In this document: one piece after another, positions 403-4,988 of the stretch | Position numbering within the stretch: the stretch's first letter is position 1 | Layout: the number at the start of each line of letters is the position of its first letter | NCBI GenBank assembly: GCA_030630315.1 | Contig: DAOVNI010000122.1 | Location: 1-5,585 of the forward strand | Direction: 5' to 3' | Length of the DNA stretch: 5,585 nt | Source: Phycisphaerae bacterium | GTDB taxonomy: Bacteria; Planctomycetota; Phycisphaerae; Sedimentisphaerales; Anaerobacaceae | Notes under the pieces: generated by a model | Told to the model about the DNA's origin: nothing | Database searches by the model: none | What the model saw: the letters and a program-made list of their open reading frames with translations, nothing else | Translations under genes and position numbers: made by a program

Positions 403-423
403 CATCGATTGACAATTGACACT
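403..423 (-). repeat. 7-bp repeat cluster in the fliM-fliN gap
   Basis: Three adjacent 7-mers can be read on the plus strand: catcgat, tgacaat and tgacact. The cluster touches the fliM stop codon (423-425). A 19-bp stretch, 406-424, matches 2269-2287 inside the response regulator gene with one mismatch, so this is a dispersed element rather than chance gap sequence. The rest of the 59-nt gap holds only the fliN ribosome site. Confidence 0.6.
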
Positions 424-2057: not shown

Positions 2058-2092
2058 AAACTCAAAACTCAAAACTAAAAACTCAAAACTAA
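2058..2092 (-). repeat. Five-unit heptanucleotide repeat between the response regulator gene and fliL
   Basis: On the minus strand the 35 bases split exactly into five 7-mers: TTAGTTT, TGAGTTT, TTAGTTT, TGAGTTT, TGAGTTT (consensus TKAGTTT). The TAG of the first unit is the stop codon of the response regulator gene (2091-2089). The array fills most of the 59-nt gap before fliL. No hairpin followed by a T-run is formed, so it does not look like a terminator. It resembles in kind the short tandemly repeated heptamers known in cyanobacterial genomes. Confidence 0.85.
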
Positions 2093-3633
2093 GCTGGCTG
2101 CAGGCACCCTTGCTGACGATATCGGCGTATCTTATCTCGCAATGTTCGGTCACTGATGCCTAATACCTTTGCAGCTTTCGTCTGGTTGCCCGCCGTCTGT
2201 CGTAAAGTATCAAGAATCGCCCGCTGCTCTATCTGCACGAGCGGTACTCCCCCCAGTCCGGAAATCGACGATTGACAATTGCCACTTGACAAATTATTTT
2301 CCTGTGGGAGTGGTTGTAATTCATCAAAGAGCCAGGAGACGTCAGCTAAGGAGAGGGTTTCGCCGACTCCTAAAATCAGGGATGTCCGCACGACATTTCG
2401 TAATTGCCGGATGTTGCCGGGCCAATGATATTTGGTGAAAATGCCCATCATCATGGGGTCAAGTTTAGTGATACGGCGCTGGACTTCGCCGGCATAAAGG
2501 TTAACAAAATGCCATACAAGGTCGGGCAAATCCTCTCTGCGTTCCCTCAGAGGTGAGATAATTAATCTTACTCCGCTTAGCCGATAGTAAAGGTCCTGAC
2601 GAAACCGGCCCTGTTGAACTTCCTGCAGTAAATCTTTGTTGGTGGTACTTATTGTTCGAATATCGACTTTGACATTTTCGTTTCCGCCGACACGTTCAAA
2701 GTCCTGCTGCTCGAGTACGCGCAACAGCTTGGCCTGAAATTTTAGAGGCGTTTCGGTGATTTCGTCCAAGAGCAGAGTCCCGCCGTGGGCCATTTCGAAT
2801 CGTCCCTTGCGCTGAGTGTAGGCACCGGTGAAAGCGCCCTTCTCATGACCAAACAGCTCGCTTTCAAGAAGCGAATCACTTAATGCCACACAATTGACTT
2901 TGATGTACGGTCCCTGTGCCCTTCTGCTTTCGTGGTGGATAAGATAAGAGATTAGCTCTTTTCCTGTTCCGCTTTCGCCGGTTATTAAAACAGGTGCCGA
3001 GGTAGGAGCTATTCTTTTAGCCAAATTGACGGTTTGGGCCAGTTTCTCGCTTCTGCCCACAATTTGATAAAGGCAGCGGATGTCCTCTTGAGCCGAATCT
3101 ATCGTTGAAACACTGTGGTTTGGCAGGAAGGTATCCAGCAGACTCTCTATTTTTTCAGGTTGGAGCGGCTTGATCAGGAAATCACAACAACCTGCATGGA
3201 TGGCCTTGACGGCTGTTTCGATTAGTTCGTCGCTCGTCGCTCGTTGCTCGTCCAGCCCCTCGGAGGGGCGGGGCTCGTTGCTCGTTGCCATAACCACCGG
3301 CAGCTCCGGCGAATTTGCCCTGATTTTCCGGAGCAGCTCGAAGCCGAGCCGGGACTGGCCGGACAGGTTGGAGCGCCGCCCCTGCTTTTGCAGTGGTGTC
3401 ATTGCCGCGGAGGCGGGAATTTTGTCGCTGGTGAACACAAGGTCGCAATTACCCTTGTCGAGAAGGTCAATAGCGGTTTTTTTGTCATTAGCAATGATTC
3501 CGTGGATTCCTTTACGGGCTAAAATCTCAAGCATAAATCGAATCAGCTCAGGGTCGTTATCAACGATCAATACATTTGCCATCCGGCTTCTCTGCGTGAC
3601 TCGCTTTACGTTGTTTATTTCGGTTTTGCTCAC
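2089..3633 (-). CDS. Sigma54-dependent response regulator (NtrC/FlbD-like) with degenerate, insertion-bearing receiver
   Basis: This is a cytoplasmic transcription activator of 514 residues from a GTG at 3633 (GGAG 10 nt upstream), or 497 from the ATG at 3582, where a typical receiver start (MANVLIVD) begins; the true start is open. Numbering uses 514. Receiver 19 to about 165; AAA+ domain about 190-420 with Walker A GESGTGKE (219-226), GAFTGA (266-271), Walker B GTLLLDEI (285-292) and WPGNIRQLRN (404-413); Fis-type helix-turn-helix about 466-507 (NQTKAAKVLGISDRTLRDKI). The intact GAFTGA predicts contact with sigma54, as known for the family. The receiver keeps Thr117 and Lys155 but has Ser69 at the phospho-Asp position (FTSDKIP) and Asn26 in the acidic pair (VDND). 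Extra residues at about 74-96 and 119-138, and the linker at 446-457, coincide with repeat-like DNA. Being next to fliL-fliM-fliN suggests control of flagellar genes, as with FlbD or FleQ; that role is inferred. Confidence 0.92.
   Translation of the reverse strand: MSKTEINNVKRVTQRSRMANVLIVDNDPELIRFMLEILARKGIHGIIANDKKTAIDLLDKGNCDLVFTSDKIPASAAMTPLQKQGRRSNLSGQSRLGFELLRKIRANSPELPVVMATSNEPRPSEGLDEQRATSDELIETAVKAIHAGCCDFLIKPLQPEKIESLLDTFLPNHSVSTIDSAQEDIRCLYQIVGRSEKLAQTVNLAKRIAPTSAPVLITGESGTGKELISYLIHHESRRAQGPYIKVNCVALSDSLLESELFGHEKGAFTGAYTQRKGRFEMAHGGTLLLDEITETPLKFQAKLLRVLEQQDFERVGGNENVKVDIRTISTTNKDLLQEVQQGRFRQDLYYRLSGVRLIISPLRERREDLPDLVWHFVNLYAGEVQRRITKLDPMMMGIFTKYHWPGNIRQLRNVVRTSLILGVGETLSLADVSWLFDELQPLPQENNLSSGNCQSSISGLGGVPLVQIEQRAILDTLRQTAGNQTKAAKVLGISDRTLRDKIRRYRQQGCLQPA
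2266..2293 (-). repeat. In-frame 7-bp repeat cluster in the linker of the response regulator
   Basis: The plus strand splits into four related 7-mers: cgacgat, tgacaat, tgccact, tgacaaa. They encode the low-complexity linker LSSGNCQSS between the AAA+ and helix-turn-helix domains. Positions 2269-2287 match the fliM-fliN gap (406-424) at 18 of 19 bases, which supports a shared mobile or amplified origin. Confidence 0.6.
3224..3285 (-). repeat. In-frame ACGAGCR heptamer array with GC-rich palindrome in the receiver domain
   Basis: On the plus strand the 7-mers agttcgt, cgctcgt, cgctcgt and tgctcgt run from 3224 to 3251. A GC-rich spacer follows, with a perfect 7-bp palindrome (3255-3269, gcccctc/gaggggc around one base), and then ggctcgt and tgctcgt at 3272-3285. 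The block encodes NEPRPSEGLDEQRATSDEL, placed between the conserved Thr117 and the ETAVKAIHAG helix, where NtrC-type receivers normally have about five residues. Confidence 0.75.
3401..3420. repeat. Palindromic element in the receiver-domain coding sequence
   Basis: The arms attgccgc and gcgggaat are inverted repeats with one mismatch around a 4-nt loop. The wider minus-strand sequence (ATTCCCGCC...GCAATGACACC) resembles the widespread ATTCCCGC...GCGGGAAT-type dispersed repeat of bacterial genomes; this resemblance is from memory and not searched. It encodes IPASAAMTP, the start of about 20 extra residues after the expected phosphorylation loop. Confidence 0.5.
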
Positions 3634-3658
3634 TTCGGGCGCACTCCATTTTCATCCC

Positions 3659-3694
3659 GCACCAATTGAGCTTAGGCTCACGCCTAATTGGTGC
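3659..3694. repeat. Hairpin element in the gap upstream of the response regulator gene
   Basis: Perfect 9-bp arms gcaccaatt (3659-3667) and aattggtgc (3686-3694) enclose a second possible stem, aggc/gcct. The element lies in the 65-nt gap between the TPR gene stop (3701-3699) and the regulator start. On the minus strand it is followed by GGGATGAAAATGG rather than a T-run, so a rho-independent terminator is unlikely. A dispersed palindrome or an mRNA processing/stability structure is more plausible. Confidence 0.6.
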
Positions 3695-3698
3695 TGGG

Positions 3699-4988
3699 CT
3701 AAAATTGGTTTTCGGTAATTAATACCCTTGGGTTGTCTTTCTGGTACCAATCAATTAATTTGCTCCGGGCTTTGGCCAAATCCGTCCAGGGCGAATCGGG
3801 ATATTCTGCAATTAGCTGTCTGTACATTTTCATTGCCGTTGGCAGGTCATCATCTCGCAGGCAGTTACCTATTTGAAATAAAGTCCAGACTCTGTTCTGA
3901 GCCGGGTCGGCTTTGTCGGGACTGCTGCGACTAAGAGCTTCCTGGTAACATATCGCTGCATCTTTTAGATGGCCGCTGAGAAACAAAAGCTCCCCCAGCT
4001 CAAATGGGCTGTGTAGTCGTTCAGGATGTTGCAACAGACTCTTGAGCATTTGTAAAGTTTGCTCGGTTACCGGCTCGTACGGTAGTCTGAGTTCGATTTT
4101 TTTCTTCTCATGTTCTTGTGGCGCCTCTATAGCAGATGAAGTTTCATTGGGTTCAGTTGCTTGGGCCGGCTCGACGACAATGACGGTTTTAGGGACCTCT
4201 TCCCGCGGCTCAAATTCAACAGAACGGATTTGCTCAATTATCCGCTGAAGTTCATTTTTACTCTCGGCCTTTTCGACTTTAGCAATGCTAATGCTGGCCT
4301 GCCACAATTGGTGTGCGAGGTGATTATTTGAGCTTTGTGCAATAGGTAAACTACCCTGTGGCAATTGAGAGCGTTTTTTGCTGTCATTCTGAGCCAAAGC
4401 CGAGGGTTCTGGCCGCTGCGTAAGAAAAGATACTTCCCCTTCGGCGCTGCGGGCTAAAGGCTCTTTCCGTTCAGAAGGCCAGGTCGCCTCAGTAGCGGAG
4501 TTTACATCAGCAATCCGGCAATTTGCCGGACTGATTTGTAATTGCTCTCCTATGGAGTCCTCACGGACTTGCCGGGCTGATTGAAGCTTAGCGAGCTGCA
4601 TCAGGGGTTCCCAGAGGCGGAAAAGAGCATCGGGGGTCCACGGGACATCAGGCGTGTTTACATCTTGCGAAGTTTCGGCTGCAATATTCGGCGTGTTTAC
4701 ATCTTGCGAAGTTTCGGCTGCAATATTAGGCGTGTTTGCATCTTGCGAAGTTTCGGCTGCAATATTCGGCGTGTTTACATCTTGCGAAGTTAGCACTAAA
4801 TGGGATGTCAGAAAATCAATCGGGTCGAGTTGTTCTGATGGGGTCTCCGCGTTGGCAAAAGATACTAATAAGCAAGAAGCTAAAAGCAAAAGGCGAAGAA
4901 CGCAAAAGCAGAACTTAAAACTCAAAGTTAAAGAACTTTTAAATTTCGGGTCATAACTTTGCTTCAAATTTTCGTTTTTAATTTCCAT
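3699..4988 (-). CDS. Exported TPR-containing protein with internal tandem repeat
   Basis: I do not recognise a named family for this 429-residue protein. Residues 1-24 are Lys-rich; residues about 25-45 form a hydrophobic signal segment (CVLRLLLLASCLLVSF) followed by ANA-ET, a good signal peptidase I site at about 47. Residues about 67-113 carry the 13-residue repeat DVNTPNIAAETSQ. Residues about 120-300 are low-complexity and probably disordered (Pro, Glu, Ser, Gln). Residues about 318-415 carry TPR-like helices, with ELGELLFLSGHLKDAAICYQ and LFQIGNCLRDDDLPTAMKMY. This suggests a periplasmic or envelope protein-binding scaffold. The ATG lies 2 nt after the stop of the preceding TPR gene, with only a weak ribosome site, which suggests coupling. 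Several stretches look like repeat DNA absorbed into the reading frame (signal region, tandem repeat, 4381-4535). LASC resembles a lipobox but is followed by more hydrophobic residues. Its role near flagellar genes is unknown. Confidence 0.8.
   Translation of the reverse strand: MEIKNENLKQSYDPKFKSSLTLSFKFCFCVLRLLLLASCLLVSFANAETPSEQLDPIDFLTSHLVLTSQDVNTPNIAAETSQDANTPNIAAETSQDVNTPNIAAETSQDVNTPDVPWTPDALFRLWEPLMQLAKLQSARQVREDSIGEQLQISPANCRIADVNSATEATWPSERKEPLARSAEGEVSFLTQRPEPSALAQNDSKKRSQLPQGSLPIAQSSNNHLAHQLWQASISIAKVEKAESKNELQRIIEQIRSVEFEPREEVPKTVIVVEPAQATEPNETSSAIEAPQEHEKKKIELRLPYEPVTEQTLQMLKSLLQHPERLHSPFELGELLFLSGHLKDAAICYQEALSRSSPDKADPAQNRVWTLFQIGNCLRDDDLPTAMKMYRQLIAEYPDSPWTDLAKARSKLIDWYQKDNPRVLITENQF
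4381..4490. repeat. Possible dispersed repeat inside the exported TPR gene
   Basis: The plus strand begins CTGTCATTCTGAGCCAAAG, which resembles from memory the TCATTCTGAGC-type dispersed sequence seen in many environmental bacterial genomes. In frame it encodes a low-complexity, charged stretch (residues about 166-203, with RSAEGEVSFLT and ALAQNDS) unlike a folded domain. The boundaries are approximate and the call is tentative. Confidence 0.35.
4506..4535. repeat. Strong inverted repeat inside the exported TPR gene
   Basis: The perfect 8-bp arms tccggcaa (4514-4521) and ttgccgga (4523-4530) flank a single base. An outer pair atcag/ctgat (4506-4510, 4531-4535) extends the stem with a 3-nt bulge. 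It encodes part of ISPANCRIAD in the low-complexity region. Such a long, near-perfect palindrome in coding sequence fits an inserted repeat element. Confidence 0.6.
4651..4791 (-). repeat. 39-bp tandem repeat, about 3.6 copies, in frame
   Basis: Units start at 4651, 4690, 4729 and 4768, exactly 39 bp apart. Three are complete and the last stops after 24 bases. The copies are almost identical (for example one tta/tgc difference giving Val to Ala). Because 39 is divisible by 3, each copy adds 13 residues (DVNTPNIAAETSQ) without a frameshift, so copy number could vary by slippage. Confidence 0.95.

What the first reader, a model, noticed from the sequence alone, without database searches (positions are those of the whole stretch)
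2058..3285. Several families of heptanucleotide repeats within one flagellar operon
Three distinct 7-bp motifs occur as short tandem arrays: ACGAGCR in the receiver (3224-3285), TKAGTTT at the regulator stop (2058-2092), and an ATTGTCA-like motif in the regulator linker (2266-2293) and in the fliM-fliN gap (403-423). All keep an exact 7-bp register but differ in sequence. This suggests a common generating or spreading process for unrelated heptamers, comparable in kind to the short tandemly repeated heptamers described in cyanobacteria. How such arrays arise and enter open frames is not explained by any gene here.
Basis: partly seen in the sequence, partly recalled or inferred. Interest (0 to 1): 0.75.

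Follow-up and report, generated by a model that had tools for sequence, protein, structure and literature searches.

The report
Seven-base DNA arrays plus tiny jumper
In the sampled genomes of an uncultured planctomycete and its sister species, short arrays of dozens of different seven-base repeats are scattered about, and one of them, in a flagellar regulator gene, holds a 21-base hairpin that the sister species lacks there and that likely jumped in; this would make the old puzzle of why bacteria favour seven-base repeats testable.

Summary
The two strong arrays (AAACTMA at 2058-2090; ACGAGCR at 3227-3251 plus 3273-3288) are far beyond chance; the ATTGTCA-like ones (403-423; 2266-2293) are not. 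In 1.19 Mb sampled from the sister species the scan gives 111 arrays at period 7, 81 at 14 and 37 at 21, against 0-14 at other periods, in 50 heptamer classes. The commonest length is about 4.5 units (31-33 bp), and 147 of 151 pooled units lack a G triplet, so the G-quadruplex reason given for the four-unit preference in Xanthomonas and Nostoc cannot apply here. Orthologous sites show change by two units, arrays present or absent, and different heptamers at one place. The receiver array itself is shared with the sister species. Inside it sits something else: a 21-bp hairpin with a 6-bp direct repeat, a 27-bp in-frame insert with a precise empty site; 52 copies show a duplicated YKMR target. 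I judge the arrays likely slippage products locked to 7 nt, and the hairpin a very small mobile element. Heptamer repeats are a known kind; this is a new variant.

The parts
3227..3251 (-). ACGAGCR heptamer array, larger part (3.6 units), in the receiver-coding part of the regulator
   Evidence: TRF; score 15, above all 300 shuffles; shared with sister species G002
3273..3288 (-). ACGAGCR array, part beyond the hairpin (2.3 units)
3252..3272 (+). 21-bp hairpin element CCAGCCCCTCGGAGGGGCGGG
   Evidence: absent from G002 at this place; same element at an empty site of the window in G002 fliL; 52 copies kept of 65 found
3246..3251 (+). left copy of 6-bp direct repeat GCTCGT (target duplication)
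   Evidence: sequence; per-position duplication over 52 copies
3273..3278 (+). right copy of 6-bp direct repeat GCTCGT
   Evidence: sequence
2058..2090 (-). TKAGTTT (AAACTMA) heptamer array, 4.7 units, overlapping the regulator's stop codon and lying upstream of fliL
   Evidence: not present at this place in G002
2089..3633 (-). sigma-54-dependent response regulator carrying the arrays
   Evidence: Pfam PF00072, PF00158, PF02954
3379..3418 (-). second in-frame insert of the receiver: 36 bp in two alignment gaps (ends approximate), containing GCCGCGGAGGC
   Evidence: absent from G002; a different hairpin lies at the same protein position in L009
1930..1931 (.). empty site in fliL: G002 has the same hairpin here with TTCATC duplicated (27 bp)
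2267..2288 (.). weak ATTGTCA-like period-7 stretch in the linker, not above chance
   Evidence: score 6
408..421 (.). weak ATTGTCA-like two-copy stretch between fliM and fliN, not above chance
   Evidence: score 7

Best explanation
The two strong arrays belong to a genome-wide family of short tandem arrays locked to a 7-base step whatever their sequence, which likely arise and turn over by strand slippage in 7-base steps, and one of them contains a 21-base hairpin with a 6-base direct repeat that likely inserted by transposition. Shown: the period lock, the length mode of about 4.5 units, near absence from some relatives, two-unit length changes between orthologues, arrays present or absent and different heptamers at orthologous places, and the 27-bp hairpin insert with an empty site and a duplicated target. 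Inferred: that slippage makes the arrays (a polymerase or repair enzyme of this lineage would step back 7 nt), that the recurrence of the same heptamers reflects a sequence preference of that step plus some copying, and that an unidentified enzyme moves the hairpin. In the regulator the order of events would be: array in the variable loop of the receiver in the common ancestor of G000 and G002, then hairpin insertion in the window's lineage only; 27 bp keeps the frame and adds 9 residues.
For: Period spectrum in G002 (1.19 Mb of 3.5 Mb): period 7 111 arrays, 14 81, 21 37, other periods from 3 to 30 between 0 and 14. Density per 100 kb: G000 14.8, G001 15.1, G002 13.8 and 17.9 (two samples), G006 15.9, against G003 0.7, G019 0.0, G027 1.7 and 0.0 after codon shuffling. 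50 heptamer classes in G002. A 14-bp difference at the orthologous array L241/L141, and 14 bp plus one separate base at L220 and L268/L233. Single arrays mix heptamers that differ by one base. Hairpin: 27-bp insert absent from G002, the reciprocal case in fliL; duplication of 4 bases in 96, 96, 98 and 90% of 52 copies, flanking bases 65 and 75%; pattern matches in 5 of 31 genomes, 96 of 99 of them in this genus.
Against: The same heptamer classes recur at unrelated loci far above chance: 164 same-class pairs against a mean of 6.6. They are also shared with another genus: 11 of 21 G006 arrays against 1.5 expected. Local slippage alone does not predict this. Arrays of a class share the phase of one end (102 pairs against 39.7, 0 of 2000), though array ends tend to fall before variable columns, so this is partly circular. 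No slippage enzyme was identified or looked for. The hairpin has no identified transposase: Y1 transposases (PF01797) occur in G000, G001, G002 and G006 (5, 1, 2, 3 matches) and not in G003, but also in array-poor G027 (5) and in 19 other genomes of the 31, so they do not decide; reverse transcriptases (PF00078) are not found in G000-G002 (these drafts are 69, 54 and 86% complete).
Confidence: 0.55

Rival explanations
1. The arrays themselves are very small mobile elements: ready-made units of 31-33 bp are copied and pasted around the genome, and slippage only changes them afterwards.
For: Recurrence of heptamer classes at unrelated loci, 164 pairs against 6.6. Sharp length mode at 31-33 bp, 49 of 151, also at other score thresholds. 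Shared end phase (with the caveat). Same classes in another genus. Matches to an AAACTMA, an AATAATC and an AATACGC array of G000 that stop at about 33 bp, without flanks. A 30-bp array present in G002 and absent in G000.
Against: I found no clean empty site with target duplication for any array. A new array replaces local sequence (L125 12805). Sister species hold different heptamers at the same place (L164/L166, L164/L165). 50 classes is many for a copy-paste element.
Confidence: 0.25
2. The arrays are selected binding sites, for example for a cold-shock or S1-like protein or a repeat-binding regulator near start codons, as proposed for TAACTGA heptamers (PMC4679880).
For: Arrays are depleted in open frames: 71 of 151 against 118 of 151 random places. 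One lies directly before an AAGGAG...ATG stretch (L220/L268). One is conserved in three species (L125 14417).
Against: 58 heptamer classes among 130 arrays of the genus are too many for one binding protein. Orthologous places lose or exchange their heptamers. Nearly half lie in long open frames.
Confidence: 0.1
3. The arrays are chance or conserved coding sequence.
For: True of the two weak ATTGTCA-like stretches.
Against: Codon-shuffled sequence gives none and no window shuffle reaches the two strong arrays. None of the 14 other orthologues aligned has these residues in the receiver loop.
Confidence: 0.03

Closest known systems
STRR heptamers of cyanobacteria (three heptanucleotides reported in Calothrix PCC 7601, per passages of PMC4692102; degenerate heptamers of the Nostoc trnL intron are recalled, not read)
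   Same: Tandem units of exactly 7 bp, several different heptamers
   Different: Another phylum; here 50 heptamer classes in the sampled third of one genome; nearly half in long open frames; no cyanobacterial sequence was compared here
GGGAATC / GGGGA(C/T)T heptamers of Xanthomonas and Nostoc (PMC4692102; sections 10 and 16 and passages read)
   Same: Period 7, dispersed, a preference for four units, length variation between relatives
   Different: 147 of 151 units here have no GGG or CCC, so the G-quadruplex explanation for four units does not carry over; not one motif but many
TAACTGA repeats of Beggiatoaceae (PMC4679880; abstract and passages read)
   Same: Heptamer arrays of 2-6 units, some close to start codons
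   Different: There one heptamer dominates and related heptamers are rarely repeated; here many classes coexist
SDR elements of cyanobacteria (Elhai et al. 2008; content recalled, seen only as a citation; paper not held)
   Same: 21-27 nt hairpin elements, some inside heptamer arrays (recalled)
   Different: Sequence not compared; here a duplicated YKMR target is measured; only 2 of 52 copies lie in or beside arrays
Rickettsia palindromic elements (passages of the review PMC10969869)
   Same: Palindromes inserted in frame into unrelated genes
   Different: About 150 bp there, 21-23 bp here

Membership tests
Bacterial heptameric tandem repeats (STRR-like) | unit length of exactly 7 bp, in excess over other unit lengths | tested here: met
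Bacterial heptameric tandem repeats (STRR-like) | many dispersed arrays in one genome | tested here: met
   111 in 1.19 Mb of G002; G000 itself 18 in 121 kb
Bacterial heptameric tandem repeats (STRR-like) | predominantly intergenic | tested here: inconclusive
   71 of 151 in open frames of 200 aa or more against 118 of 151 for random places: depleted, not excluded
G-quadruplex heptamers (GGGAATC type) | G tract of three or more in the unit | tested here: not met
   4 of 151 units have GGG or CCC
G-quadruplex heptamers (GGGAATC type) | preference for four units | tested here: met
   55 of 147 arrays without a G triplet are nearest to 4.5 units
MITE (for the hairpin) | terminal inverted repeat and target duplication | tested here: met
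   hairpin with duplicated YKMR in 52 copies
MITE (for the hairpin) | autonomous partner with the same ends | tested here: not met
   11 end pairs 60-3000 bp apart in the 1.19 Mb sample; the one with a 4-bp duplication is two separate copies in one gene; two thirds of G002 not searched
REP (GTAG or CGTC type) | GTAG or CGTC tag at one end | tested here: not met
   absent from the 21-bp element (sequence); tag definition from abstract and passages of PMC3733652
SDR of cyanobacteria | sequence match to one of the SDR families | not testable with these tools
   paper not held; no cyanobacterial genome compared
Rickettsia palindromic element-like | in-frame insertion in protein genes | tested here: met
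   38 of 52 copies in open frames of 200 aa or more, random places 83%; 23-base consensus open in six frames
Rickettsia palindromic element-like | length about 150 bp | tested here: not met
   21-23 bp; 150 bp from passages of PMC10969869

The most novel reading that the evidence does not exclude
Heptamer arrays are the scars of tiny hairpin transposons: each insertion duplicates a 4-base YKMR target and each excision leaves 3 bases, so a hot target grows by 7 bases per visit, which would explain at once the period 7, its independence of sequence and why a hairpin sits between array units.
Probability: 0.06. Interest if true: 0.9.

Novelty: new variant of a known kind. Interest (0 to 1): 0.6.

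Why it matters
For the bacterial preference for 7-bp repeats the papers seen here offer hypotheses only (polymerase contact length, G-quadruplexes, regulator binding). A lineage with many different heptamers, a fixed step, a 4.5-unit mode without G tracts, and relatives that nearly lack the arrays allows these to be tested: the G-quadruplex reason fails here, and array-rich against array-poor genera can be compared for the responsible enzyme. The 21-bp hairpin with a target duplication would be among the smallest mobile DNA elements known (recalled comparison), and it adds 9 residues to proteins without shifting the frame.

Tried and rejected
Tried and rejected. (1) A 5+2 architecture (five constant bases, two variable): distances between two variable columns are 15, 11, 11, as chance gives. 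(2) A polar decay gradient along arrays: 75 against 91 mismatches, p 0.28. (3) Inverted neighbours as a rule: of 11 neighbour pairs within 150 bp in the de-duplicated set, 4 are inverted; clustering itself is real, 11 against about 2. (4) REP-type transposases (PF01797) and reverse transcriptases (PF00078) as the maker: the first are in all four array-rich genomes and not in G003, but also in array-poor G027, so undecided; the second are not found in G000-G002, and G006 has 3. (5) A full-length partner of the hairpin in L151: two copies in one gene. (6) Nostoc plasmids as direct comparison: records not held. (7) Scar model: G002 shows a precise empty site, not a scar, in the receiver; only 2 of 52 hairpins lie in or beside arrays; array-rich G006 has one hairpin match. 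The conserved TCGT core of 39 arrays and the excess of YTCRY in units (43 of 151, shuffled mean 15, maximum 26 of 500) are its support. (8) Rfam: no match in the window at gathering scores.

Limits. Pooled arrays have score 12 or more; 161 were found in 1.53 Mb, 1 lay within 20 bases of a stretch end and 9 were dropped as orthologous or repeated, leaving 151 in 67 classes. The 31-33-bp mode holds at thresholds 9, 10, 12 and 14. Of the first 20 G002 stretches 15 were taken as coming from contigs with ACGAGCR matches and 5 not (13.8 and 17.9 arrays per 100 kb). The 40 later ones came from contigs named in earlier match lists, mostly long ones; over all 65 G002 loci the density is 9.4 per 100 kb. 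Three of ten G006 stretches came from contigs with ACGAGCR matches and were left out of the density, but are in the pooled 151. Of the 18 orthologue alignments printed, several are poorly aligned on one side or repeat a pair; I rest on those named. The 25 clean indels count some events twice, once against each sister. ACGAGCR counts have a reversed-pattern control that is not always zero: G046 and G103 have many control matches and I do not lean on them.

Full report
What the window is. The window is a whole contig (G000:C262) of a draft genome (1.8 Mb, 69% complete). Named relatives found with the regulator are mostly Phycisphaerae, Sedimentisphaerales and other planctomycete metagenome genomes; contig C54 of the sister species G002 has the same length (22,938) as JAUWBI010000060.1, Phycisphaerae bacterium CSMAG_1316, the closest of them (87%). 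All main genes lie on the minus strand: two FliM/FliN-type proteins, FliL, a sigma-54-dependent response regulator and two TPR proteins.

Check of the observation. Two arrays are strong: 2058-2090 (score 20) and 3227-3251 (score 15), the latter continued at 3273-3288 (score 9). In 300 dinucleotide shuffles of the window the best score is 12. The ATTGTCA-like stretches score 7 and 6, which shuffles reach often.

The hairpin in the receiver array. Aligned with the sister species (92% identity over aligned columns) the window has 27 extra bases at this place, and the remainder of the array is shared. The insert is CCAGCCCCTCGGAGGGGCGGG (3252-3272) plus a second copy of GCTCGT. The reverse case lies in fliL: G002 carries the same palindrome there with TTCATC on both sides, and the window is empty. 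A third case, with TTAACC repeated, is in G000 contig C210 against G002. Over 52 copies kept of 65 found, four bases are duplicated in 96, 96, 98 and 90%; the first is a pyrimidine in all and the last a purine in all but one right-hand copy (consensus YKMR, palindromic), and the outer bases, mostly G and C, are duplicated in 65 and 75%. I read this as a 21-23-bp mobile hairpin with a 4-6-bp target duplication, total 27 bp, so it keeps any frame; its consensus is open in all six frames, and 38 of 52 copies lie in open frames of at least 200 aa (random places 83%). The pattern matches in 5 of 31 genomes: G000 12 matches, G001 14, G002 70, G018 2, G006 1 (symmetric copies count on both strands). 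Clean indels of 12 bp or more between G000 and its sisters number 25, some counted against both sisters, of which 23 are multiples of three; several others are also hairpins.

Genome-wide heptamers. In G002 (65 loci, 1.19 Mb) a scan for each period from 3 to 30 gives 111 arrays at 7, 81 at 14, 37 at 21, and 0-14 at every other period. Samples of this genus and of G006 have 14-18 per 100 kb, while G003 and G019 of the same family and G027 of the order have 0.7, 0.0 and 1.7; codon-shuffled sequence gives 0.0. Over all 65 G002 loci the density is 9.4. The single motif ACGAGCR twice in tandem is found in 38 of 118 genomes of the order: by my count from the table 32 of 46 in the window's family and 6 of 72 in the others. 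The G002 arrays fall into 50 heptamer classes, so the step, not the sequence, is fixed.

Length. In the pooled 151 arrays, 49 are 31-33 bp long against 18 of 27-29 bp and 14 of 34-36 bp, and half-integer unit numbers dominate (4.5: 55, 3.5: 24, 5.5: 13; 4.0: 17, 5.0: 14, among 147 without a G triplet). The mode does not depend on the score threshold. A preference for four units is reported for G-rich heptamers of Xanthomonas and Nostoc and was set against the four tracts of a G-quadruplex (PMC4692102, sections 10 and 16 read). Here 147 of 151 units have no GGG or CCC, so another cause is needed at least here. That paper also cites a 2007 finding that heptamers are over-represented among bacterial simple repeats, and a hypothesis that the length of DNA in the polymerase active site promotes slippage; I have not read the 2007 paper.

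Orthologous places. Three-species alignments and pairs show several kinds of change. An array is conserved (L125 14417). Unit number differs by two units (L241/L141), and by two units plus one separate base (L220 and L268/L233). A 30-bp array is present in G002 and absent in G000 (L242/L141). A stretch of about 27 nt shared by G001 and G002 is replaced in G000 by a heptamer array that runs in a 280-aa open frame and codes for CELRVAGCELRV (L125 12805). Different heptamers occupy the same place (L164/L166, L164/L165). Arrays keep register while their units diverge (L275/L005, L002/L155). This is turnover in place, with some appearance from nothing. In the window, the receiver array is shared by G000 and G002 and missing in the 14 other orthologues aligned, whose loop there is of variable length; the 2058-2090 array is not found at that place in G002.

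For and against spreading. Arrays of one class at unrelated loci are far more common than chance (164 pairs; random genomic heptamers give a mean of 6.6, maximum 16 of 300), and 11 of 21 G006 arrays belong to classes seen in the window's genus (1.5 expected, maximum 5 of 500). Arrays of a class share one end phase (102 pairs against 39.7, none of 2000 randomisations; start phase 59, 5 of 2000), but because ends tend to fall before variable columns this is partly built in. These results favour some copying or a strong sequence preference. Against mobility as the main process stand the lack of any precise empty array site with a target duplication in the alignments seen and the exchange of heptamers in place. 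I therefore put slippage locked to 7 nt first (0.55) and copy-and-paste of arrays second (0.25).

Scar model. The window's hairpin sits exactly between two CTCGT units, four bases of its target are duplicated in nearly all copies, and 39 arrays have a conserved TCGT core with three more variable positions (mismatches 29, 18, 11, 10, 10, 24, 16 along YTCRYNN). It is tempting to see arrays as 4+3 scars of insertion and excision. But the core (TCGT) is shifted by one base from the YKMR target (CTCG), the empty site in G002 is precise, only 2 of 52 hairpins lie in or beside arrays, and G006 is rich in arrays with one hairpin match. I keep it as the novel case at 0.06.

Literature. None of the papers listed by the searches in the held library (up to 15 listed each, for instance 15 of 648) is by its title or listed abstract about heptamer arrays in Planctomycetota; I did not read the unlisted ones, and most subscription journals are not in that library. 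PMC6749651 mentions heptamer-derived satellites in Chloroflexus and lists Rhodopirellula among satellite counts (passages), and PMC3733652 reports GTAG/CGTC palindromes in Planctomycetes (passages). Elhai et al. 2008, which I recall as describing 21-27-nt elements often embedded in heptamers, was seen only as a citation.

Noticed in passing
window 3379-3418; L009: The receiver has a second in-frame hairpin insert of 36 bp that G002 lacks; L009 (G005) has a different hairpin at the same protein position. The loop seems a repeated landing place.
   Followed up: partly
L016, C-terminal end of the regulator: An in-frame hairpin (TCCGCCTGTGGCGGA...) lengthens the HTH end in G011.
   Followed up: no
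window 3656-3694; L037 3255-3293, 6947-7009, 8251-8297: A dispersed palindrome (GCACCAAT...ATTGGTGC) before the TPR gene; its inner part looks inverted in G002 and a further copy lies between two genes there.
   Followed up: no
window 4651-4791: 39-bp tandem repeat (3.6 copies) in the TPR protein, coding for TSQDVNTPNIAAE; G002 has fewer copies.
   Followed up: no
window 4547-4569; L037 6877-6897: Two 21-bp inserts, one in each species, look related in inverted orientation (CTCCTATGGAGTCCTCACGGA; CCCGTCAGGGCTCCCAAGGAG): perhaps a second small hairpin family.
   Followed up: no
window 2089-3633: The receiver reads DLVFTSDKI where a phosphoacceptor Asp is expected (expectation recalled), and the Pfam receiver match covers only residues 21-73 of the protein; its phosphorylation may be lost.
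   Followed up: no
L162 14430-14640: Heptamer arrays flank a hairpin in inverted order, and two inverted AACTACG-type arrays follow; a composite repeat structure.
   Followed up: partly
L125 12098-12940: One 280-aa open frame of G000 holds a heptamer array near its middle-to-end and ends in a second pair of arrays that supplies its last codons (IQKTEDRRQTSDF).
   Followed up: partly
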